Below are positions 1 to 6,089 of a DNA stretch of 6,215 bases, piece after piece. Origin of the DNA: Thermoproteota archaeon. GTDB lineage: Archaea > Thermoproteota > Methanomethylicia > Culexarchaeales > Culexmicrobiaceae. The translations under genes and the position numbers were made by a program. The notes below the pieces were generated by a model. That model saw only the letters and a list, made by a program, of their open reading frames with translations, was not told the DNA's origin and did no database searches. The stretch's first letter is position 1; every line of letters starts with the position of its first letter. The DNA lies in the NCBI GenBank assembly GCA_003650625.1, contig QMQW01000022.1, forward strand, positions 1-6,215, written 5' to 3'.

Positions 1-297
1 CTTAGTAAGAGTTCCAGGAACAGTCCACACAAGCATTCGCTCACTATACGGCGTTAACGTGCCGTCAGGATTAACCCACCACTTCGAGCCATCATCAAGA
101 TAGACTCGCAGGATCCTGCCATCATCAGTCTTATAATCAATATAGGGTCTGGCAGTAACACCTGTCTCACTATTGCCGCTCTCAGCTTTAGCCTCAACCG
201 ATCCCGGCCCACCCTGCATGAAGTAATAGTAGTAGCCTAAAGCAGCAACCACAATTACAACCGCTATTACCGCCAAGAGCTTCCTATTAACCTCCAA
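1..297 (-). CDS. Membrane-anchored exposed protein, 3' end cut by window edge
   Basis: I do not recognise this gene. The reading frame is open from a TGA at 304-306 to the window edge, giving 99 residues without a stop. The chosen start is TTG at 297 (MEVNRKLLAVIAVVIVVAAL); an alternative TTG at 279 would give MAVIAVV. Residues about 7-25 form one strong hydrophobic helix preceded by Arg-Lys, so the protein is probably an N-in, C-out anchored protein. It continues with a Tyr-rich stretch (GYYYYF), then a polar, Gly/Asp/Ser-rich region with DDG repeats (TDDGR, LDDGSKWW) suggestive of a beta-rich ectodomain. It follows the 41-residue gene by a 10-bp overlap and has its own TTCTAT motif about 23-35 nt upstream, inside that gene. 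Its architecture resembles the protein at 2057-2572, but I see no sequence similarity. A surface or virion-membrane role is inference only. Confidence 0.7.
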   Translation of the reverse strand, partial: MEVNRKLLAVIAVVIVVAALGYYYYFMQGGPGSVEAKAESGNSETGVTARPYIDYKTDDGRILRVYLDDGSKWWVNPDGTLTPYSERMLVWTVPGTLTK

Positions 298-412
298 CCT
301 TCCTCAGCCTCCTAACCCTCCAAAATATAGAAATAGCCTGAAAAGTCAGAACTCCAAGAGCAACAGCTGCAGCAAGCAAATCAGAGCCAGCAGAAATAAG
401 CGGATCACTCAT
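287..412 (-). CDS. 41-residue single-span membrane protein
   Basis: This short gene is read directly from the sequence: MSDPLISAGSDLLAAAVALG and so on, ending in a basic tail RVRRLRKVGG and TAA. The ATG at 412 overlaps the last codons of the protease gene by 8 nt. A GGGAGG lies 9 nt upstream, inside the protease gene, so translation is probably coupled. An in-frame ATG at 421 has no room for an SD and is less likely. Residues about 12-32 are hydrophobic (one membrane span), followed by seven residues with five Arg/Lys, which predicts a cytoplasmic C-terminus. I do not recognise a family. The purine-rich DNA coding for the tail also carries the TTCTAT motif and multiple GG runs that serve as the leader of the next gene. 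The gene is supported by position and composition only, so moderate confidence. Confidence 0.6.
   Translation of the reverse strand: MSDPLISAGSDLLAAAVALGVLTFQAISIFWRVRRLRKVGG
291..321 (-). promoter_or_regulatory. G-rich leader with eight GG runs
   Basis: On the coding strand these 31 bases contain eight separate runs of GG or GGG spaced by 1-4 nt, including three GGAGG-type SD cores. They encode the basic tail of the 41-residue protein and lie directly upstream of the next start. They probably provide several overlapping ribosome-binding sites. Two-tetrad G-quadruplex formation is possible but untested. Confidence 0.4.
320..332 (-). promoter_or_regulatory. TTCTAT motif before the left-edge membrane protein
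   Basis: The coding-strand sequence is TTCTATATTTTGG, continuing into GGAGGG. It lies inside the coding sequence of the 41-residue gene, not in a gap. This argues that the motif belongs to the downstream gene and is not simply a terminator after a stop codon. Confidence 0.65.
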
Positions 413-932
413 AATCCTCATCCTCCCTGAAAAACTTCTCCATAAACCCCCAAGCCAACGCACCTACTAGAGCCGCTGGAAGAAGCATTTCAGGGGCGTA
501 GGTTACAGTCAAGTTGTATGATGCGTGGCCCAGCATAGCGCATAGGAGGCCTGGAGTAAAGTTGAACGGCTCCTTGCTCGAGTACCTGTAAACTACAATG
601 CAATTCCAAAAACCAGCTGCTACAGCAGCCATTAAGGCGTACATGTTCTGCTCATAAGCCCACCAATGAGCCATACCAAAACCGACAGCCGCAATAGTGC
701 CAGCAGCCAAATAATGCAATCCAAGATACATCAGCAGTAATGGGACGAAATAGCGGAAGAACATCTCTTCGCTTGGCGCCACTATTAAGCCGTGAAAGAG
801 TGTTGGACTTTCAATGCCAATAGGCGTTGACTGAAGCCTGCCAGTGGCAATGTAGCTGAAAAACAGCGCAATAGCAGTTAAGCCACTATAGCTCAGCAAG
901 TAACCCTTAATCAGCTTAGAAAAGTAACCCAT
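405..932 (-). CDS. CPBP-family intramembrane protease (Rce1/CAAX-protease-like)
   Basis: This is a predicted membrane-embedded glutamyl protease of the CPBP (CAAX protease and bacteriocin-processing, 'Abi') family. With ATG at 932 it has 175 residues. The three family motifs are all present and ordered: EExxxR (E55, E56, R60 in APSEEMFFRY), FxxxH (F85, H89 in FGMAHWW) and HxxxN (H136, N140 in GHASYN). About five hydrophobic helices surround them, and the C-terminus is acidic (FFREDEDYE). It is shorter than many relatives, but the catalytic core looks complete. The ATG overlaps the TGA of the upstream gene (TGATG), with GGTGGTGA as SD, so it is coupled to that small membrane protein; a TTG one codon earlier is possible. 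Members process prenylated proteins or peptides, mature bacteriocins or give immunity; the substrate here is unknown. The surrounding membrane proteins are candidate substrates (inference). Confidence 0.88.
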   Translation of the reverse strand: MGYFSKLIKGYLLSYSGLTAIALFFSYIATGRLQSTPIGIESPTLFHGLIVAPSEEMFFRYFVPLLLMYLGLHYLAAGTIAAVGFGMAHWWAYEQNMYALMAAVAAGFWNCIVVYRYSSKEPFNFTPGLLCAMLGHASYNLTVTYAPEMLLPAALVGALAWGFMEKFFREDEDYE

Positions 933-1132
933 CAATCACCACCTTCCATCCTTCTAGTGAGAAGCCAGCCGAAAAGCGCGCTTGAAACCATACATATAGC
1001 GTATATAATGTAGACTAGAACGTCATTAACCTCGCCTACATACAAGTTGCCGAGCATGCAGTACAGTCCGTAAACTATGCTTAGAGCGCCGATAATTATG
1101 GCGTCCCAAGGGACACCTACCTCCTCGCTCAT
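932..1132 (-). CDS. Small two-span membrane protein, 66 residues
   Basis: The chosen start is ATG at 1132 (MSEEVGVPWDAIIIGALS). It lies just downstream of a TTCTAT motif and a GGAGAG/GGAGG purine tract; a longer in-frame start at 1180 would run through the motif and is unlikely. Residues about 10-31 and 37-59 are hydrophobic, giving two predicted membrane spans with a short acidic loop (YVGEVNDV). The tail is basic then acidic (TRRMEGGD). I do not recognise the family. The stop TGA overlaps the start of the CPBP protease gene, so the two are likely co-translated and may act together. Candidate roles are protease partner, protease substrate or virion-membrane protein, all inference. The first 107 bases overlap the extended frame of the Cys-rich gene upstream. 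Confidence 0.75.
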   Translation of the reverse strand: MSEEVGVPWDAIIIGALSIVYGLYCMLGNLYVGEVNDVLVYIIYAICMVSSALFGWLLTRRMEGGD

Positions 1133-1307
1133 TGCCTCCAACTCTCCGAAAAATAGAATTATCATAAGCCGCAAACCCATAGCCCTTCAAAACGTAAATC
1201 TCAGCGACATCCGGAGGAACACGCTTAAAGTAAATGCAGTCCTCACACTTCCTCGAAAACCTAACCAAAAAGCACTTCTTCAACTCACAAACAGGAGTAA
1301 GCTTCAA
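1026..1307 (-). CDS. Small Cys-rich protein, 3' end uncertain (possible frameshift)
   Basis: The start is TTG at 1307, placed 6 nt after a GGTGA SD that contains the TGA of the upstream gene; a TTG at 1313 would leave no space. The N-terminal part has Cys 7, 12, 21 and 24 (CELKKC, then CEDC), a plausible zinc site, followed by YFKRVPPDVAEIYVLKGYGF. The literal frame stays open to 1026 (93 residues), but the last ~45 residues run through a TTCTAT motif and 107 bases of the next gene. They look like an off-frame reading (NERGGRCPLGRHNYRRSKHS). In another frame TGA TAA occurs at 1159-1164, exactly before the motif, as at other junctions. A one-base difference between about 1165 and 1200 would give a ~48-residue protein with a normal end. 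The N-terminal half is more secure than the C-terminal half. Function unknown. Confidence 0.5.
   Translation of the reverse strand: MKLTPVCELKKCFLVRFSRKCEDCIYFKRVPPDVAEIYVLKGYGFAAYDNSIFRRVGGNERGGRCPLGRHNYRRSKHSLRTVLHARQLVCRRG
1146..1158 (-). promoter_or_regulatory. TTCTAT motif before the two-span membrane protein
   Basis: The coding-strand sequence is TTCTATTTTTCGG, directly followed by AGAGTTGGAGGCAATG, so the purine-rich ribosome-binding tract begins at the end of the motif. It fixes the downstream start at 1132 rather than 1180. Confidence 0.75.
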
Positions 1308-1309
1308 TT

Positions 1310-1645
1310 TCAATCACCACCCAAACCAAAAACCCACTCAGTCAAACGAGCAATGAACCTGAACTGAAGCAAGTAAAGCAAAATGAAAACAACTGCTGCA
1401 AACACCATCCGTCCATACTCAGTAACCAAATCCAAAATCCACTCAAAGTAAGTTGAAACCTCACCATGAGGAACAACCATGCTCTTGAGAAACTGGGCCG
1501 GCGCCAAATAAGCCCAATAGGCAGCCAGGGCCGCCGAAACCAAGCTGTAAAGCCTAGCCCAACCACCGCCCTTAGTAATTGTAATGGCAACTGGAACAAT
1601 CACATAGAAAGTCAGAAAAAATAGGCTTGGAATAATGAAGTCCAT
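1310..1645 (-). CDS. Three-span membrane protein, 111 residues
   Basis: I recognise no family. The start ATG at 1645 overlaps the TAA of the upstream gene (TAATG), with GGAAGCGGAAG just before it, so it is translationally coupled. Predicted membrane spans are residues about 3-23 (FIIPSLFFLTFYVIVPVAIT), 31-52 and 78-98 (MVFAAVVFILLYLLQF). Between spans 2 and 3 is a loop of about 25 residues with acidic and aromatic residues (EVSTYFEWILDLVTEYG). The tail is FIARLTEWVFGLGGD. The frame ends in a TGA embedded in the GGTGA SD of the next gene. It lies in a four-gene unit (two-span membrane protein, small basic protein, this, Cys-rich protein). A membrane or envelope role for the unit is inferred only from composition and context. 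Confidence 0.8.
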   Translation of the reverse strand: MDFIIPSLFFLTFYVIVPVAITITKGGGWARLYSLVSAALAAYWAYLAPAQFLKSMVVPHGEVSTYFEWILDLVTEYGRMVFAAVVFILLYLLQFRFIARLTEWVFGLGGD

Positions 1646-1815
1646 TACTTCCGCTTCCTCTTAGCTTTAAACGCTTCAACTTCAAGTTTAATTTTGACTT
1701 CATCAGCATCCAGCCCTGCAATCAGCTGAATAATGCTCCTGAGATCGCGGACTACACTGTCTTTGCTGCCGCTGCAGGTAAACCTGTTCTTGTAAATTGA
1801 CCTGCGCTTAAACAA
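1645..1815 (-). CDS. Small basic soluble protein, 56 residues
   Basis: The start is placed at TTG 1815 (MFKRRSIYKNRFTCSGSKDS), 6 nt after GAGGGTGA at the very end of the upstream gene and one base after its TAA. Upstream TTG/ATG codons in frame (1875, 1863) would make a long overlap with the membrane protein and lack an SD. The product is rich in Lys/Arg with basic ends (FKRRSIYKNR and FKAKRKRK). A central amphipathic helix (VVRDLRSIIQLIAGLDADEV) and a charged segment (KIKLEVEAF) lie between them. No membrane span and only one Cys. It could bind nucleic acid or contact the cytoplasmic face of its membrane-protein neighbours; neither is shown. Its stop overlaps the next start (TAATG). Confidence 0.65.
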   Translation of the reverse strand: MFKRRSIYKNRFTCSGSKDSVVRDLRSIIQLIAGLDADEVKIKLEVEAFKAKRKRK

Positions 1816-1816
1816 A

Positions 1817-2026
1817 TTATTCACCCTCTTCAGATCCAGCCCTGCCAAGCCACTCAACAGCATAGCCAAGGCCAATCGCTAAACCGCCGACGAGGATCCA
1901 GCCCACTGGCCCCATAGCAATGAAGCTGTTGGTTATCCCCGTCAAAATGTAGCTGCCAAAAAGCATCACTCCACCCTTAATCAGCTTCTTAATCCAAGGA
2001 TGCTCCATAAACTGATCCATAGACAC
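1817..2026 (-). CDS. Small Gly-rich two-span membrane protein, 69 residues
   Basis: The start is GTG at 2026 (MSMDQFMEHPWIKKL), 8 nt after GGAGG; ATG 2020 is an alternative, while TTG 2041 overlaps the SD and motif. After an amphipathic N-terminus there are two Gly-rich hydrophobic helices, residues about 19-38 (MLFGSYILTGITNSFIAMG) and 42-60 (GWILVGGLAIGLGYAVEWLG), then an acidic tail GSEEGE. Small hydrophobic two-helix proteins of this size are typical of major membrane or coat proteins in several archaeal virus groups. That is an analogy, not a detected homology. It is the first gene of a four-gene unit led by a TTCTAT motif, and its final codons supply the SD (GAGGGTGA) of the next gene. 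The strong SD suggests high expression. Confidence 0.75.
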   Translation of the reverse strand: MSMDQFMEHPWIKKLIKGGVMLFGSYILTGITNSFIAMGPVGWILVGGLAIGLGYAVEWLGRAGSEEGE

Positions 2027-2037
2027 ACCAGACCCCT

Positions 2038-2050
2038 CCAAAAAATAGAA
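2038..2050 (-). promoter_or_regulatory. TTCTAT motif before the Gly-rich membrane protein
   Basis: The coding-strand sequence is TTCTATTTTTTGG, the consensus itself, running straight into GGAGGGG. It lies 6 nt after the TAA of the upstream ectodomain protein. Confidence 0.8.
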
Positions 2051-2056
2051 GTAAAC

Positions 2057-2572
2057 TTACGGCGTAGTCTGAAGCCTCACCAGGTTAATGTAGTACTGCT
2101 GGTCAACCTTGACTTCATCATCTTGCTGCAAACCCCACATATTCCACCAGTACTCGACAACCACCAGCCTAACACTGTGCATACCCAAGCCAGCATCATA
2201 ATACCATACAACCTCATGAGTTCCCTCAGGCAAACTGAACTTCTTATTAAGCTTGCAAACCCCATCAACGTAAACCTGAACTTTAACTTGAAACTCCCCG
2301 CTAGGCGGAGTCACAAAGTTAGGAATGCTCGAAGTAACATAGCCCTTAACATCATACTCTAAAACATCAACGCCTCCCTGCCGACCATCCCAAGTCTTCC
2401 ACGCCTTCAATTTAACGCGAACCATAACGTAGTAGTACTTCGGCTTGCCAGGCTCACTCTCATCAATAACGTCAGCAGCCTCCCAAGCGAAATTCTGCAT
2501 TATCGCTGAGCCAAACAGCGCAAAGAACACTAAGCCAAGCACACCTATAACACCAACAGTTTTCCAGTCCAA
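2057..2572 (-). CDS. Membrane-anchored beta-rich ectodomain protein, 171 residues
   Basis: I recognise no family. The start is TTG at 2572 (MDWKTVGVIGVLG) with GAGGTG upstream and a TTCTAT motif before it. Residues about 6-26 (VGVIGVLGLVFFALFGSAIM) form one membrane span with a Lys at the start, acting as a signal anchor. The remaining ~145 residues alternate hydrophobic and polar residues (YYYVMVRVKLKAW, FQVKVQVYVDGVCKL, HEVVWYYDAG, HSVRLVVVEYWW), a pattern expected for an immunoglobulin-like or jelly-roll beta sandwich. It is rich in Tyr, Trp and Val with a single Cys. The short charged start plus one hydrophobic helix also resembles an archaeal pilin, but no clear prepilin peptidase site is visible. 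A surface or virion spike protein is the most likely guess. Confidence 0.8.
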   Translation of the reverse strand: MDWKTVGVIGVLGLVFFALFGSAIMQNFAWEAADVIDESEPGKPKYYYVMVRVKLKAWKTWDGRQGGVDVLEYDVKGYVTSSIPNFVTPPSGEFQVKVQVYVDGVCKLNKKFSLPEGTHEVVWYYDAGLGMHSVRLVVVEYWWNMWGLQQDDEVKVDQQYYINLVRLQTTP

Positions 2573-2582
2573 TTAGCCCACC

Positions 2583-2595
2583 TCAAAAAATAGAA
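2583..2595 (-). promoter_or_regulatory. TTCTAT motif before the ectodomain protein
   Basis: The coding-strand sequence is TTCTATTTTTTGA, continuing as GGTGG. It begins 5 nt after the TAA of the upstream basic protein. Confidence 0.75.
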
Positions 2596-2600
2596 TAGGC

Positions 2601-2918
2601 TTAAAGTGGCTTCTTGAGTCTAAAAGGCTTCCAACCCAGCTTCCGCCTAAACCTGTTTATGAGCCTAATCGACTTCATCTTCTCGCTTTTAGGCATCTTA
2701 CTGCTATGCAGCACAGCTAAGAACAGAGTCCTGGTTCTGGCATTGATTGTTTGAGGAGAAATGCCGTGCTTCAAATCCTCATCCATTTCTCTAAGTATCT
2801 CTTCAACTTCTCTCGAATGGCTCAAACCTGAAGGCTTAATGTCCCTCACTTGCCGTCGCAAGTAAACTGGAGCATCAACATAAACAACCCTACCACCAAT
2901 ATACGTAGGCTTACTCAC
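2601..2918 (-). CDS. Small basic protein of unknown function, 105 residues
   Basis: The start is GTG at 2918 (MSKPTYIGGRVVYVDAPVYL), 6 nt after GGGGGT; the TTG at 2924 is only 2 nt from that SD. The product is soluble and strongly basic at its C-terminus (INRFRRKLGWKPFRLKKPL). A short beta-like N-terminus (GGRVVYVDAPVYLRRQV) is followed by helical segments, one with alternating charge (SREVEEILREMDEDLKHG), then SPQTINARTRTLFLAVL and KSEKMKSIRLINRF. No Cys, membrane span or known motif is visible. The N-terminus resembles the style of ribbon-helix-helix proteins (RVVYVDAPVYLRRQV then a helix), which raises a DNA-binding hypothesis, but the fit is loose. It is a single-gene unit with its own TTCTAT motif, between the 248-residue protein and the ectodomain protein. 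Confidence 0.75.
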   Translation of the reverse strand: MSKPTYIGGRVVYVDAPVYLRRQVRDIKPSGLSHSREVEEILREMDEDLKHGISPQTINARTRTLFLAVLHSSKMPKSEKMKSIRLINRFRRKLGWKPFRLKKPL

Positions 2919-2928
2919 AGCCAAACCC

Positions 2929-2940
2929 CCAAAAATAGAA
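2929..2940 (-). promoter_or_regulatory. TTCTAT motif before the small basic protein
   Basis: The coding-strand sequence is TTCTATTTTTGG, one T shorter than the other copies, continuing into GGGT. It begins 5 nt after the TAA of the 248-residue protein. Confidence 0.75.
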
Positions 2941-2945
2941 GATTA

Positions 2946-3692
2946 TTAGTAGATTTCAGGAAGCTCAGGAATGTACTCATCGTAAGTTCTGATGTAGCCT
3001 TCCTCTTCACGCAGCCTTATGTCAGCCTCCCATGCAGCCATCATAGCCTTAACGTCATCGTCAGTGATGCCAGCATATTTGTCGGCTACTGCATTCATTA
3101 TTTTCCGCATAATTTCGCCTTTCACATAATGGTAGCCCTGCGCCCAATCAAAATCGTGAAGCAAATCAATGTTCTGCATGTCGAAGCCCTGACTCTTAGC
3201 GTAATCGTAAAGCATCCTGATGATGTTTAGCACTGTGATGTAAGTCCAGTTGCCGGCCCGCTTAACTGAAGGTGAAAGCTCATCCCAAACAAAGTCAGCC
3301 ATCCTCTTAACTTCACTTGGAAGTTTGGGCCGCCTTGGAAATGCAGCCTTAAGAACGGCCTCAGCCCTGACAGGCTTCTGAACCTTCTCCTCAACTCTCC
3401 TGGAAACAGCCTCAGCAGCCCTAACAGCCTCCTCAGTAAGCCTCTTAGCAACCTGAATTACTGGATCAAAAGTATGCCTCCACCTGCCACGCCCAATTGA
3501 GCCGCCCCTAGCCAAATCACGTTCACGAGAAAACCTAACAAAGTAGTCGCCGCCCCTATGATAGTAGTATCCCGGGCCTTCCCAAGCAGCCTCAACAATA
3601 ACCCTAGCCTGTTCTCGAGTATAGCCATAGTGCTTCCTCAGCTTGCTAATGAAATCCTTTTTACTTTTAACTTTGAACAGCGGGCCGGGCAT
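2946..3692 (-). CDS. 248-residue charged protein of unknown function
   Basis: I do not recognise this gene. ATG at 3692 follows GGGGTGA by 6 nt, and that SD contains the stop of the upstream winged-helix gene, so the two are translationally coupled. Three regions are visible. Residues 1-75 are basic (FKVKSKKDFISKLRKHYGYT, then RERDLARGGSIGRGRWR) and look like a helix-rich nucleic-acid or protein contact domain. Residues about 78-118 form a long Arg/Glu/Ala helix, possibly coiled-coil (AKRLTEEAVRAAEAVSRRVE). Residues 125-248 are helical with many aromatics (WTYITVLNIIRMLYDYAKS, then DFDWAQGYHYV) and an acidic Tyr/Pro-rich end (YDEYIPELPEIY). There is no Cys and no membrane span. A replication, partition or structural DNA-associated role would fit its pairing with a winged-helix protein; this is inference. 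Confidence 0.8.
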   Translation of the reverse strand: MPGPLFKVKSKKDFISKLRKHYGYTREQARVIVEAAWEGPGYYYHRGGDYFVRFSRERDLARGGSIGRGRWRHTFDPVIQVAKRLTEEAVRAAEAVSRRVEEKVQKPVRAEAVLKAAFPRRPKLPSEVKRMADFVWDELSPSVKRAGNWTYITVLNIIRMLYDYAKSQGFDMQNIDLLHDFDWAQGYHYVKGEIMRKIMNAVADKYAGITDDDVKAMMAAWEADIRLREEEGYIRTYDEYIPELPEIY

Positions 3693-3698
3693 AGTAAA

Positions 3699-3926
3699 TC
3701 ACCCCTTGATGCCTTTAGCCACCTTTTCACCCTTGCTGGTAATCCTGATGATCCAATACTTCCCCTTAGCATCGTACTCTCTGTAAATGAGTCCACGTCG
3801 CTCCAAAGCTAAAACCGTTTGAACGCCGAGCCTACGCAAGCTCTTAACCCTGAGAACTCCATGCGCCCTATAAAGCTTCATCAATACTTCCATCATCTGA
3901 GGAGTAAAAGGCCTCAACCTAGCCAA
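3699..3926 (-). CDS. Winged-helix DNA-binding protein, 75 residues
   Basis: The start is TTG at 3926 (MARLRPFTPQMMEVLMKLYR) after GGGGAT. The order of elements is that of a MarR/PadR-like winged helix: helix 1 TPQMMEVLMKLYRAHG, helix 2 VKSLRRLG, recognition helix VQTVLALERRGLI, then the wing YREYDAKGKYWIIRITSKG, and a short last helix GEKVAKGIKG. The size equals a single bare domain without a dimerisation extension, as often found in archaeal viruses and plasmids. It probably binds DNA and may regulate its own unit, including the coupled 248-residue protein downstream (the stop TGA is part of that gene's SD). The two palindromes near 6027-6089 are one candidate target, but nothing links them directly. 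The fold is assigned with fair certainty, the role is not. Confidence 0.8.
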   Translation of the reverse strand: MARLRPFTPQMMEVLMKLYRAHGVLRVKSLRRLGVQTVLALERRGLIYREYDAKGKYWIIRITSKGEKVAKGIKG

Positions 3927-3934
3927 AGCAATCC

Positions 3935-3947
3935 CCGAAAAATAGAA
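3935..3947 (-). promoter_or_regulatory. TTCTAT motif before the winged-helix gene
   Basis: The coding-strand sequence is TTCTATTTTTCGG, continuing into GGATTGC and the TTG start. A partial second copy (TTTCTACC) lies just upstream on the same strand. Confidence 0.75.
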
Positions 3948-3969
3948 AGGTAGAAACTTGCAGGGGGTA

Positions 3970-4230
3970 CTACTTCGATCTCTCGTAAGCCCTCTTGAGA
4001 ATCGCTCTTACTTTACTCCACCTAGCAGACACCGGAACACTCGTATGGACAAAGTAAATTATGCCGTGTTCAGCATCATAACCTCCACCAGCAGTCAACT
4101 CATTAGCAATGAGATAATGCTCATCCGTAGTAAGATTCCTCAAAGCCTTCTTGCCAGCCCTAGTTAAGTAAACTTCAGTGTAGCCAGGCATAATTTTGGT
4201 CTTCTTAATCCACCTAATCCGCTTAACCAA
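3970..4230 (-). CDS. Small basic winged-helix-like protein, 86 residues
   Basis: The start is TTG at 4230 (MVKRIRWIKKTKIMPGYTEV), 6 nt after GGTGA and preceded by a TTCTAT motif. The segment YTEVYLTRAGKKALRNL matches the strand-turn-helix that ends many winged-helix domains (the 'YxLTxxGxxAL' pattern). The residues before it are too few for a full canonical domain, so this may be a divergent or rearranged version. The second half has a Gly-rich turn (TAGGGYDAEHG), a short beta strand (IIYFVHT) and a basic C-terminal helix (ARWSKVRAILKRAYERSK). No Cys or membrane span. DNA or RNA binding is likely from charge, but the family is not recognised. It forms a single-gene unit and ends 44 nt upstream of the next start. 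Confidence 0.7.
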   Translation of the reverse strand: MVKRIRWIKKTKIMPGYTEVYLTRAGKKALRNLTTDEHYLIANELTAGGGYDAEHGIIYFVHTSVPVSARWSKVRAILKRAYERSK

Positions 4231-4239
4231 AATAGCTCA

Positions 4240-4252
4240 CCAATAAATAGAA
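4240..4252 (-). promoter_or_regulatory. TTCTAT motif before the basic winged-helix-like gene
   Basis: The coding-strand sequence is TTCTATTTATTGG, continuing into TGAGC (GGTGA SD) and the TTG start at 4230. An AT-rich stretch (CTTTTATT) precedes it. Confidence 0.75.
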
Positions 4253-4275
4253 AATAAAAGTCAACTGCTACTCGC

Positions 4276-4635
4276 TTAATATAGAAAATCATCTAAGGTA
4301 CGTTTATGGGCGTTGGGGCTTTTATAATAGCAATTTGAATGATAGCAAAGTTCATCTTCAATCCAAACCAATTCACGCTTTCCAGGCCGCCCATGCTTAG
4401 GATGCTTCTCGTAAAGTTCACCATGAATTACAACTACCGCTTTTTCACCTCTAATCGGCCTGCCACATATAAAGCATCTACCGTAATCAACCCTTTTAAC
4501 TAGCGTTTGCACATAGCTGCCGCCGGCCCGAACATAAACATCCTTGCTAGTTTCAATGTAGCCTCCCTCAAACCTATACTTAGGATCCTTCTGCAAATAC
4601 TCAATTGGAATAACAGGAATACCTCGCTTACCCAT
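4276..4635 (-). CDS. Zinc-binding (treble-clef/zinc-ribbon-like) protein, 119 residues
   Basis: ATG at 4635 is chosen because GGAGGT lies 7 nt upstream; a GTG at 4650 would put that SD inside the gene. The N-terminal half (MGKRGIPVIPIEYLQKDPKY, then YVRAGGSYVQTLVKRVDYG) is beta-like and unassigned. The C-terminal half has CFICGRPI (C54, C57) and CYHSNC (C97, H99, C102), about 40 residues apart, a typical four-ligand zinc site. The first knuckle (CxxCGRPIRGEKAVVV) is the usual first half of a treble clef. Between them lies a Lys/His/Gly-rich loop (EKHPKHGRPGKRELVW). Such proteins in archaeal mobile elements usually contact nucleic acid or other proteins. It follows the methyltransferase stop by 25 nt but has its own motif and SD, and a functional link to the methyltransferase is not shown. 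Confidence 0.8.
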   Translation of the reverse strand: MGKRGIPVIPIEYLQKDPKYRFEGGYIETSKDVYVRAGGSYVQTLVKRVDYGRCFICGRPIRGEKAVVVIHGELYEKHPKHGRPGKRELVWIEDELCYHSNCYYKSPNAHKRTLDDFLY

Positions 4636-4646
4636 TCTAAAAACCT

Positions 4647-4659
4647 CCACATAATAGAA
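4647..4659 (-). promoter_or_regulatory. TTCTAT motif before the zinc-binding protein gene
   Basis: The coding-strand sequence is TTCTATTATGTGG, continuing into AGGT. It starts 1 nt after the TAG of the methyltransferase. It is one of the more divergent copies, yet TTCTAT and the final GG are kept. Confidence 0.65.
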
Positions 4660-4660
4660 A

Positions 4661-6025
4661 CTAGAAGTACTGAGTTAATCGCCGCTGAGTTACAAATGGT
4701 TCCAATCGTTTTCGAGCAATATCGCAATATTCAGGGTTAATGTCAATTCCAATCCATTTTAAATTCCACTTAACCTTTTTAGCAAAATCATTAACATGAA
4801 TCTTGAATTTACTCCACATTCCATGATTAATAAGCTCGCAACATAAGAGAGTAGTACCACTTCCACACATAGGATCTAAAACTATTCCGTCAGGTGGGCA
4901 TGAAGAAAGAATGGGTCTTAAGCAAATGTCTATAGGATAAACTGCAAAGTGCTTTCCCTTAAATGGCCTAGTTGAAATAGGCCAGAAATCACCAGGATTC
5001 TTACCTAACTCATTATACGCATCTGAAGGAGGATAAGCAAACCTAACATCACTTCTATGCTGAATATTCGGCCTCCTACCATCAATCAAATCCTCTAAAG
5101 ACAATCCCTTTAATTCAATAATATCACCAGGATTTTTCCCATTAGGATGAGCAGTTCTAGGAACATCAACTTTCCACCAACCCTTAAGAGTTCTAGGCTC
5201 AACCGAAGAATACTTAGCATCAGAATTTAATCTAACAACATCTCCAGGATTTTTACCCTTATCATTATACGCTTTAACATGAAGAGGATCAGAATAAGAG
5301 AAATTGCCAATTCGATTAACCGCAATATCATGCTTAGTTAAATTCAAAACATCTCCAGGATTCTTACCTTTAGGATGCTGAACTAAATAACCACTTGGTC
5401 TAATACCAAAATACTTACTATTTTCTTGTTTAGTACGCTTCCGGCCCAAATCTTTAATGGAAGTATGAGGCTCTCTAATCAAATCCAAGTTATAGTAATA
5501 CTTTCTCGACTTAACAAAATGAAAAATATGCTCGTAACTCCTAGTTAACCTATCTTTCACGCTTTCAGGCATGTGATTAGGCTTATACCAAATAACATCA
5601 TTTCTAAGAATCCAACCGTCATCAATAAGAGCTAAAGCCAACCTATAAGGCAAACCAACAAGACATTTTCCATTATAAGAATCTCCTATTACAATATACA
5701 CGCTTCCAGTTTTCTTGAGAATCCTTTTAATTTCACGGCAGCCCTCAACAAGATTTTCAATATAATCATCAACAGTAGCTTCTAACCCTATTTGACCATC
5801 AACACCATAATCTCTAAGGCCCCAATAAGGAGGACTAAACATTACTAAATCAACACTTTCACTTGAAAAAGTAGCCATAACATCTATCCAATCACCACAA
5901 ATAATTTGATTTAATGGAAGCTTCTCGAGCCGCTTACCAACGTATTTCCATTTCTGCTTACCACCTTCACTTATAACATCATAGATGTAAGTATGCCCCT
6001 TAATCCGCTTCTCAACCAGCACCAT
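4661..6025 (-). CDS. Beta-class DNA methyltransferase, N4-cytosine type likely
   Basis: This protein transfers a methyl group from S-adenosylmethionine to a DNA base. From ATG 6025 it has 454 residues. Catalytic motif IV SPPYW is at 64-68, followed by GLRDYG; Ser in this position is typical of N4-cytosine enzymes, though an N6-adenine enzyme is not excluded. Motif X (HFAVYPIDICLRPI) precedes motif I LDPMCGSGTT at 383-392, and GIDINPEY follows, so the order IV-target region-X-I is beta class. Residues 5-33 (KGHTYIYDVISEGGKQKWKY) resemble a small archaeal add-on domain. The region between motifs IV and X holds four GKNPGD copies at 220, 257, 296 and 341. The start is fixed by a TTCTAT motif 7 nt upstream; a TTG at 6103 would read through two palindromes. 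No restriction endonuclease is visible beside it. The gene is visibly more A+T-rich than its neighbours and lacks a strong SD, which hints at separate acquisition. Solitary enzymes like this often protect element DNA from host restriction. Confidence 0.93.
   Translation of the reverse strand: MVLVEKRIKGHTYIYDVISEGGKQKWKYVGKRLEKLPLNQIICGDWIDVMATFSSESVDLVMFSPPYWGLRDYGVDGQIGLEATVDDYIENLVEGCREIKRILKKTGSVYIVIGDSYNGKCLVGLPYRLALALIDDGWILRNDVIWYKPNHMPESVKDRLTRSYEHIFHFVKSRKYYYNLDLIREPHTSIKDLGRKRTKQENSKYFGIRPSGYLVQHPKGKNPGDVLNLTKHDIAVNRIGNFSYSDPLHVKAYNDKGKNPGDVVRLNSDAKYSSVEPRTLKGWWKVDVPRTAHPNGKNPGDIIELKGLSLEDLIDGRRPNIQHRSDVRFAYPPSDAYNELGKNPGDFWPISTRPFKGKHFAVYPIDICLRPILSSCPPDGIVLDPMCGSGTTLLCCELINHGMWSKFKIHVNDFAKKVKWNLKWIGIDINPEYCDIARKRLEPFVTQRRLTQYF
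4988..5005 (-). repeat. GKNPGD repeat copy 4 (canonical position)
   Basis: It codes GKNPGD and leads into FWPISTRPFKGKHFAVYP, the usual context of this peptide before motif X in related methyltransferases. It is 18 bp, nearly identical in DNA to copies 1-3. Confidence 0.8.
5123..5140 (-). repeat. GKNPGD repeat copy 3
   Basis: It codes GKNPGD followed by IIEL and is preceded by HPN. It is separated from copy 4 by 45 residues and from copy 2 by 39 residues (start to start). Confidence 0.8.
5240..5257 (-). repeat. GKNPGD repeat copy 2
   Basis: It codes GKNPGD followed by VVRL and is preceded by DK. Its start is 37 residues from that of copy 1. The DNA differs from copy 1 at one base (GGTAAAAATCCTGGAGAT against GGTAAGAATCCTGGAGAT). 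Confidence 0.8.
5351..5368 (-). repeat. GKNPGD repeat copy 1
   Basis: It codes GKNPGD followed by VLNL and is preceded by HPK, the same surroundings as copy 3. It marks the beginning of the repeated part of the target-recognition region. Confidence 0.8.
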
Positions 6026-6026
6026 A

Positions 6027-6057
6027 GTTACCAATAGATAGAATAAATATTGGTAAC
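6027..6057. repeat. Perfect 10-bp inverted repeat at the methyltransferase start
   Basis: The arms GTTACCAATA (6027-6036) and TATTGGTAAC (6048-6057) are exact reverse complements around 11 nt. The structure ends one base before the ATG at 6025 and contains the TTCTAT motif in its loop and inner arm. It could be a repressor operator. In the mRNA it would be a 10-bp hairpin that masks the ribosome-binding region. Confidence 0.8.
6031..6043 (-). promoter_or_regulatory. TTCTAT motif before the methyltransferase
   Basis: The coding-strand sequence is TTCTATCTATTGG, then TAACT and ATG. Unlike the other copies it is not followed by a purine-rich SD, and it is embedded in the inverted repeat. It supports the start at 6025. 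Confidence 0.7.
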
Positions 6058-6067
6058 AGCGACAAGC

Positions 6068-6089
6068 GAGCATAACTGGAGTTATGCTC
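6068..6089. repeat. Perfect 10-bp inverted repeat with 2-nt centre
   Basis: The arms GAGCATAACT (6068-6077) and AGTTATGCTC (6080-6089) are exact reverse complements around GG. It lies 10 nt upstream of the first palindrome on the coding strand and has an unrelated sequence. The near-zero spacer fits a dimeric-protein binding site better than an RNA hairpin. Confidence 0.8.

What the first reader, a model, noticed from the sequence alone, without database searches (positions are those of the whole stretch)
320..6043. Nine copies of a TTCTATTTTTTGG motif mark the first gene of each expression unit
On the coding strand, 13-nt elements occur at 6031, 4647, 4240, 3935, 2929 (12 nt), 2583, 2038, 1146 and 320. 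TTCTAT is identical in all nine, followed by a T/A-rich part and then GG or GA that is usually the first part of the SD. The link is to the downstream gene: two copies lie inside an upstream frame (320, 1146), and one follows a 155-bp gap (6031). The start codon is usually only 7-15 nt beyond the motif, too close for a TATA box of a leadered mRNA. Possible roles are an initiator/promoter-proximal element, an mRNA cleavage or U-rich termination signal coupled to re-initiation, or a 5'-UTR translation enhancer, perhaps read by an element-specific RNA polymerase cofactor.
Basis: partly seen in the sequence, partly recalled or inferred. Interest (0 to 1): 0.85.

Follow-up and report, generated by a model that had tools for sequence, protein, structure and literature searches.

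The report
Virus-specific gene-start signal in archaea
A 13-letter DNA tag sits just before the genes of this archaeal virus fragment that must be started on their own, keeps its place in related viral DNA, and is not used by genes of the likely host, so it looks like the virus's own gene-start signal, though whether it works on DNA or on RNA is still open.

Summary
All nine copies exist, TTCTAT is identical in each, and they precede 9 of the 15 starts I assigned; random placement gave at most 5. The six starts without a copy overlap, or lie within 6 nt of, the upstream gene. The window is guttavirus-like: one protein is 30% identical to an Aeropyrum pernix ovoid virus 1 protein. A contig fetched by that protein (L002) has four copies, each before a start. 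Homologous genes keep the motif in small contigs of two MAGs from one Thermoproteota order of seven held genomes. In 800 kb from that order the T-rich part shows no link to starts (2 of the 201 best hits, 2.6 expected). APOV1 has no copy at up to three mismatches. It is not an ordinary TATA box, an oligo-T terminator or a conserved RNA hairpin. My best reading, only slightly ahead, is an element-specific promoter-type sequence read on DNA (invariant C and A, A/T exchanged in the tract, GG kept where it cannot be a Shine-Dalgarno sequence, 20 nt shared by two leading genes). The close rival is a translation leader fused to the Shine-Dalgarno sequence. Transcript-end mapping would decide.

The parts
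6031..6043 (-). motif copy TTCTATCTATTGG before g1 (methyltransferase); lies within a perfect 10-nt inverted repeat GTTACCAATA/TATTGGTAAC
6044..6057 (-). GTTACCAATATTTA directly before the motif; with TTCTAT it makes 20 nt identical to L002 4573-4592
6068..6089 (.). perfect inverted repeat GAGCATAACT-CC-AGTTATGCTC in the leader (possible operator, inference)
4647..4659 (-). motif copy TTCTATTATGTGG before g2; the g2 relative in L002 has TTCTATTTAATGG
4240..4252 (-). motif copy TTCTATTTATTGG before g3; the homologous gene in L049 has the same 13 letters
3935..3947 (-). motif copy TTCTATTTTTCGG before g4; the homologous gene in L002 has TTCTATTTTTTGG
2928..2940 (-). motif copy TTCTATTTTTGGG before g6
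2583..2595 (-). motif copy TTCTATTTTTTGA before g7
2038..2050 (-). motif copy TTCTATTTTTTGG before g8
1146..1158 (-). motif copy TTCTATTTTTCGG before g12, inside the g11 frame; the L091 homologue keeps TTCTAT at the same 26-nt spacing but not the T tract
320..332 (-). motif copy TTCTATATTTTGG before g15, inside the g14 frame (residues ISIFW); L051 has TTCTATTTTTTGG before the homologous gene
4661..6025 (-). g1, N6/N4 DNA methyltransferase (PF01555)
4276..4635 (-). g2, 119 aa with paired cysteines (zinc-finger-like by eye); relative in L002
3970..4230 (-). g3, 86 aa; 62% identical gene beside an integrase in L049
3699..3926 (-). g4, 75 aa, MarR-like winged helix by predicted fold; 69-96% identical in nine relatives; candidate reader of the motif (inference)
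2946..3692 (-). g5, 248 aa, no motif (6 nt after g4); PHROG 38579, relative of APOV1 orf15-259
2601..2924 (-). g6, 107 aa
2057..2572 (-). g7, 171 aa, N-terminal membrane segment by eye
1817..2026 (-). g8, 69 aa, membrane protein by eye
1645..1824 (-). g9, 59 aa, no motif (overlaps g8)
1310..1645 (-). g10, 111 aa, no motif (overlaps g9); 62% identical in L091
1026..1307 (-). g11, 93 aa, no motif (2-nt gap); the L091 homologue, parted from g10 by a restriction-modification pair, has one
932..1132 (-). g12, 66 aa, starts 107 nt inside g11; 73% identical in L091
405..932 (-). g13, CPBP/Rce1-like membrane protease (PF02517), no motif (overlaps g12)
287..412 (-). g14, 41 aa, no motif (overlaps g13)
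1..297 (-). g15, runs off the window; 82% identical to the start of a 283-aa protein in L051

Best explanation
The motif is an element-specific gene-start signal read on DNA: a short promoter-type sequence, consensus YTCTATTTWWTGGNG, whose first T usually lies 16-26 nt before the start codon, which launches each independent unit of this guttavirus-like virus and gives very short-leader or leaderless messages. A protein contacts the nearly invariant TTCTAT and the A/T tract is the stretch that melts. Since genes of the likely host order do not use it and most sites lack a host-type TATA box, the contact is probably made by a factor that the element brings; the conserved MarR-like protein g4 is the natural candidate. 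Shown: the sequence, its placement, its conservation before homologous genes, its absence at coupled starts, the lack of host use.
For: Placement at 9 of 15 starts; random placement reached at most 5 in 20,000 trials. Four copies in L002, fetched by protein homology alone, each shortly before a start, with none at the g4-g5 junction, as in the window. Motif before homologues of g2 and g4 (L002), g3 (L049), g15 (L051) and g11 (L091, where g11 is no longer coupled). In the 13 window and L002 sites TTCTAT varies only in its first letter (C in 2) and position 12 is G in 13 of 13; at positions 7-10, 50 of 52 letters are A or T, 9 of them A (list, counted by eye), which looks like melting rather than U-specific recognition. 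GG is kept at g15, 22 nt from the start in the window and 25 in L051, where SD-like sequence lies nearer the start by eye. Window g1 and L002 4608 share 20 nt (GTTACCAATATTTATTCTAT) with an AT-rich core centred 22-26 nt before ATG (by hand) and have poor Shine-Dalgarno matches, as leaderless genes would. Likely host: T-rich part alone 2 of the top 201 hits before starts, 2.6 expected; TTCTAT 6 times in -40..-4 of 749 starts, 17.4 expected. g4 folds as a winged helix like MarR. No shared RNA fold at 23 sites (mean z -0.49).
Against: No TATA box where an archaeal promoter would need one: over 25 sites, 8-nt windows starting 30 to 16 nt before the motif have the lowest AT content (0.52-0.58), and 2 of 17 motif genes have a TATA-type hexamer starting -40 to -22 from the start, against 237 of 749 host genes (one of the 17 starts was set one base off). 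At most sites the motif runs into a Shine-Dalgarno-like GGNG at normal spacing, and coupled starts lack it; a translation element predicts both. In L091 the g12 copy has lost the T tract and GG spacing, and one L051 gene has the variant TTCTCTTTTTTGA. Four plus-strand genes of L049 lack the motif. Similar sequence lies before a few host-type genes, such as a UbiD gene in L093. TTCTATTTWTTGG at up to one mismatch has 113 places in the seven genomes of that order against 57 for the reversed pattern, not explained. g4 was not found in L049, L086 or L087.
Confidence: 0.4

Rival explanations
1. Translation leader: the motif is part of the mRNA, UUCUAU plus a U-rich stretch fused to the Shine-Dalgarno sequence, and lets ribosomes land afresh on a polycistronic viral message wherever the start is not coupled to the upstream stop.
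For: GGNG at SD spacing at most sites; present at uncoupled and absent at coupled starts; 6 of 9 motif starts are TTG or GTG against 2 of 6 without motif; no TATA box at most sites. Adding native 5'-UTRs raised protein yield in Sulfolobus acidocaldarius and the SD mattered there (PMC11627041, passages seen).
Against: Nearly invariant C and A and T-to-A exchange fit U-rich recognition poorly; motif kept at two leading genes with poor SD and at g15 22-25 nt from the start; likely-host genes do without it; no shared RNA structure, although 6 of 23 sites fold with z below -2, each differently.
Confidence: 0.35
2. Termination or RNA-processing signal coupled to the next unit: a U-rich end of one message, a new message after it.
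For: Six window copies follow a stop codon within 25 nt; the tract is T-rich.
Against: Five or more T in a row in only 6 of 13 sites (list); two window copies lie inside the upstream coding frame, about 120 and 32 nt before its end; spacing is fixed to the next start, not to the previous stop; the L049 copy has no evident upstream gene on its strand.
Confidence: 0.1
3. Modular joint: gene plus motif is a shuffled cassette, and the repeat persists because it is also a short homology at which genes are swapped.
For: Between g2 and g4 the window has g3 and L002 another gene of about 130 aa, each with its own motif; a methyltransferase in the window and a restriction-modification pair in L091 lie between motif copies; g3 with its motif stands beside an integrase in L049.
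Against: 13 nt is short for homologous exchange; fixed spacing to starts is not explained; coupled joints lack it.
Confidence: 0.08
4. Coincidence of T-rich intergenic sequence or a composition artefact.
For: T-rich sequence before an SD resembles the motif; the 13-mer at 3 mismatches exceeds shuffles only modestly.
Against: 0 of 20,000 placements; four copies before starts in a relative fetched by protein; 5 matrix hits of 16 or more in 800 kb of host-order DNA against 8 in the window and 4 in 2.4 kb of L002, though the matrix was made from those window and L002 sites.
Confidence: 0.02

Closest known systems
Intergenic repeats of halovirus HF2 that carry promoters (PMC8707807; abstract and passages seen)
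   Same: Archaeal virus with several near-identical short intergenic sequences before genes, conserved in relative position among relatives.
   Different: HF2 repeats are 58 or 29 bp and contain a TATA box, and promoter activity was measured. Here the repeat is about 13-15 nt, abuts the start codon, mostly lacks a TATA box at the expected place, and is untested.
Consensus regulatory sequence of SIRV2 and other archaeal-virus early genes (PMC11065993; abstract and passages seen)
   Same: One sequence repeated before many genes of a virus (11 of 13 SIRV2 early genes).
   Different: Built around a strong BRE and TATA core, which is missing at most sites here.
5'-UTR with Shine-Dalgarno sequence, such as the alba leader of Sulfolobus acidocaldarius (PMC11627041; passages seen)
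   Same: G-rich sequence near the start codon at normal spacing.
   Different: The TTCTAT part shows no link to starts in the likely-host DNA tested here.
Aeropyrum pernix ovoid virus 1 (Betaguttavirus, Guttaviridae)
   Same: g5 is related (about 30% identity).
   Different: No copy of the 13-mer at up to three mismatches; one looser match, CTCTATTTCGGG, 64 nt before a start. No g4 relative in the phage collection.

Membership tests
Archaeal BRE/TATA promoter | TATA box about 26 nt upstream of the start site | tested here: not met
   Lowest AT content in windows starting 30-16 nt before the motif, 25 sites; TATA-type hexamer in 2 of 17 motif genes. Two leading genes do have an AT-rich core before the motif.
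Archaeal BRE/TATA promoter | Drives transcription initiation | not testable with these tools
   No transcript data.
HF2-type promoter repeats | Several copies before genes, conserved in position in relatives | tested here: met
   Window 9, L002 4, and single sites before homologues in L049, L051, L091.
HF2-type promoter repeats | Contains a TATA box at the expected place | tested here: not met
HF2-type promoter repeats | Promoter activity in a reporter | not testable with these tools
   Needs an experiment.
Shine-Dalgarno ribosome-binding site | G-rich match a few nt before the start | tested here: inconclusive
   G at position 12 in 13 of 13 sites, but g15 is 22-25 nt away and two leading genes have poor matches. 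No host 16S 3' end was found in the loci.
Shine-Dalgarno ribosome-binding site | Host genes use the same sequence | tested here: not met
   The GG part is linked to starts in likely-host DNA, the TTCTAT part is not.
Oligo-T terminator | Run of five or more T after the upstream stop | tested here: not met
   6 of 13 sites have the run (one search list); two window copies lie inside coding frames.
Guttaviridae | Homologous core genes | tested here: inconclusive
   Only g5 matched APOV1.
Guttaviridae | Ovoid or droplet-shaped virion, circular dsDNA genome | not testable with these tools
   Fragment only; features from the ICTV abstract in a search listing.

The most novel reading that the evidence does not exclude
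A group of archaeal viruses marks its genes with a private, TATA-less initiation code, TTCTAT-(A/T)5-GG, decoded by a virus-encoded winged-helix factor (g4) that brings host RNA polymerase or ribosomes to viral genes only: one short signal for all independent viral genes, with host genes left out.
Probability: 0.25. Interest if true: 0.82.

Novelty: new variant of a known kind. Interest (0 to 1): 0.55.

Why it matters
Archaeal viruses encode no RNA polymerase of their own and depend on the host's (PMC5569661, abstract start in a listing). A compact signal at nearly every independent start of a viral fragment, kept when homologous genes sit elsewhere, and not used by the likely host, would be a simple way to tell viral from host genes. 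It is also a handle for finding these poorly sampled viruses: a 15-base pattern led to relatives in two genomes here.

Tried and rejected
Ordinary TATA promoter: rejected for most sites. Oligo-T terminator: rejected (6 of 13 sites). Shared RNA hairpin: 23 sites folded, mean z -0.49, 6 of 23 below -2 with differing structures, tract unpaired in 51%. Host-wide signal: loose matrix hits before likely-host starts looked enriched (7 of 79, 1.1 expected), but permuting the first 11 columns and keeping the GG part did as well in 11 of 60 permutations (mean 4.4), and the T-rich part alone gave 2 of 201 against 2.6; the enrichment comes from the SD-like part. In 398 Thermoproteota genomes TTCTATTTWTYGGNG had 33 places in 31 genomes, and the reversed control 33 by my hand count.

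L007: one exact 19-mer in an otherwise different viral contig with no motif excess; taken as chance. L014-L017 (distant g5 relatives, L014 carrying APOV1 sequence): only scattered loose matches, not set against gene starts; in L014-L016 no matrix score above 11.8. Viral-contig scans with g5, g4, g2 and g15 gave no usable relative (one search confirmed one relative but returned no locus). Whole-genome searches with the g5 profile: 1 of 156, 0 of 29, 0 of 227, 4 of 398, and 0 of 7 in the order of G827. That last result speaks against calling this order the host: its MAGs carry relatives of g3, g10-g13 and g15 but none of g5. With g4: 2 of 392, one of them weak and full of stops.

Bias: L049, L050 and L051 were found by the motif itself, and L091, L086 and L087 were taken because they held motif-like hits; L002 alone was found without it. 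Of the contigs behind the 113 hits only part was fetched. They are small contigs and may be misbinned. Gene starts of host DNA came from a simple script. Motif-like sites before the L087 integrase and twice in L086 hint at use by other mobile elements; with 113 hits to choose from this is a lead only.
Full report
What the window is. Fifteen genes run on the minus strand. Pfam finds an N6/N4 methyltransferase (g1) and a CPBP/Rce1-like membrane protease (g13) among the ten proteins scanned. g5 matches PHROG 38579 and orf15-259 of Aeropyrum pernix ovoid virus 1 (29.8% identity, E 1e-17). No other window protein matched APOV1 by tblastn. I call the window guttavirus-like, not a guttavirus.

The observation. 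All nine copies are real. TTCTAT is found 12 times on the coding strand and once on the other. Nine of 15 starts have it 16-35 nt upstream; random placement reached at most 5 in 20,000 trials. I assigned the starts after seeing the motif. The six starts without it overlap the previous gene or begin within 6 nt of it. The motif thus marks starts that cannot lean on the upstream gene.

Relatives. Protein g5 led to L002, a 6.6-kb contig binned with a Candidatus Aenigmatarchaeota MAG; g5 is 66% and g4 75% identical there. L002 has four copies, at 4298, 4587, 4965 and 5406, each shortly before a start, and none at the g4-g5 junction, as in the window. Its other 4.2 kb, with a methyltransferase, scores no higher than 9.9 on the motif matrix. 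A pattern scan of 398 Thermoproteota genomes gave 33 places, no more than its control (control counted by hand), but two lay in MAG G827. There L049 has TTCTATTTATTGGGG, 7 nt after the 13-mer comes the ATG of a gene 62% identical to g3, beside an integrase. Four other genes of L049, on the plus strand, lack the motif. L050, with ferritin, ABC-transporter, MazE and PIN genes and so probably chromosomal, has the same sequence before a decayed start of that gene. The order of G827 has seven held genomes. One, G857, gave L051 with the motif before a gene 82% identical to g15, and L091 with g10, g11 and g12 homologues. In L091 g10 and g11 are parted by a methyltransferase and a DpnII-type endonuclease, and g11, now uncoupled, has a motif 9 nt before its start that the coupled g11 of the window lacks. 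The L091 g12 copy keeps TTCTAT but not the tract. The phylum is taken as Thermoproteota because G724 in it carries APOV1 sequence. That this order is the host is an inference: the g5 profile found nothing in its seven genomes.

Host test. In 800 kb from three genomes of that order, the 749 predicted starts show SD-like and TATA-like hexamers, so the starts are good enough, but TTCTAT occurs 6 times in -40..-4 against 17.4 expected, and the motif pattern 0 times. With a matrix made from the 13 window and L002 sites, hits of 16 or more number 5 in 800 kb, against 8 of the 9 window sites and 4 of 4 in L002, which is partly by construction. A lenient test found hits before starts enriched (7 of 79, 1.1 expected). 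Column permutations show that this comes from the SD-like GG part: 11 of 60 did as well, and the T-rich part alone gave 2 of 201 against 2.6. The seven genomes hold 113 near-matches against 57 for the reversed pattern; I have no explanation beyond sequence bias.

Anatomy. Aligned on TTCTAT, the 13 window and L002 sites give YTCTATTTWWTGGNG; letters 2-6 and G12 are invariant. The tract takes A as well as T (50 of 52 letters at positions 7-10 are A or T, 9 of them A; counted by eye on the list). Over 25 sites, AT content is high just before the motif and lowest in windows starting 30-16 nt before it, so there is no TATA box for a start at the motif. TATA-type hexamers at the leaderless position occur in 2 of 17 motif genes. 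At window g1 and L002 4608, which lead in this sense, 20 nt are identical, including an AT-rich core centred 22-26 nt before ATG; their SD matches are poor. In the window this site also forms a perfect 10-nt inverted repeat, and a second one lies upstream; by eye L002 lacks the right arm. No shared RNA fold was found.

How it most likely works. Two readings remain close. On DNA: a short element-specific promoter-type signal, read by a factor that the element brings, with the A/T tract as the melting region. On RNA: a leader fused to the SD that lets ribosomes land at uncoupled starts. I put 0.40 on the first and 0.35 on the second. The first gains from the invariant C and A, the T/A exchange, the GG kept where it is too far from the start to be an SD, the leading-gene block and the absence of host use. 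The second gains from the missing TATA box and the fusion with the SD. g4, a MarR-like winged helix (AlphaFold mean pLDDT 89.5; best PDB match MarR, E 4.1e-3, none below 0.001), 69-96% identical in nine relatives, is the candidate reader; this is inference.

Comparison. HF2 intergenic repeats (PMC8707807) and SIRV2 early-gene sequences (PMC11065993) are repeated regulatory sequences of archaeal viruses, but both hold TATA boxes. Six literature searches listed no paper whose title or shown start of abstract describes this motif. The lists were short (10 of 144 papers, 20 of 84,016) and most papers were not opened, so I cannot say that it is absent from print.

Noticed in passing
window 6068-6089: Perfect 10-nt inverted repeat GAGCATAACT/AGTTATGCTC with a 2-nt spacer in the leader before g1; possible operator.
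   Followed up: partly
window 6027-6057: Perfect inverted repeat GTTACCAATA/TATTGGTAAC with TTCTAT in its centre; L002 keeps the left half, not the right.
   Followed up: partly
L091 467-2378: Methyltransferase and DpnII-type endonuclease pair between homologues of g10 and g11, with a motif copy on each side.
   Followed up: partly
L002 4608-4974: The g2 relative is split between two frames in this contig; described only.
   Followed up: no
L050 1819-1900: Contig with cellular genes has the motif followed by a decayed start of a g3-like gene, a likely provirus scar.
   Followed up: partly
L051 65-1287: TnpB-like gene (Cas12f1-like TNB domain) beside the viral genes; TTCTTTTTATTGG lies about 10 nt before its listed start.
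   Followed up: no
L086 1057, 1868; L087 1396 (-), 2147: Motif-like sequences before or between genes of other integrase-bearing contigs in MAG G827; perhaps shared by several mobile elements.
   Followed up: partly
window 405-932: CPBP/Rce1-like membrane protease in a virus-like genome.
   Followed up: no
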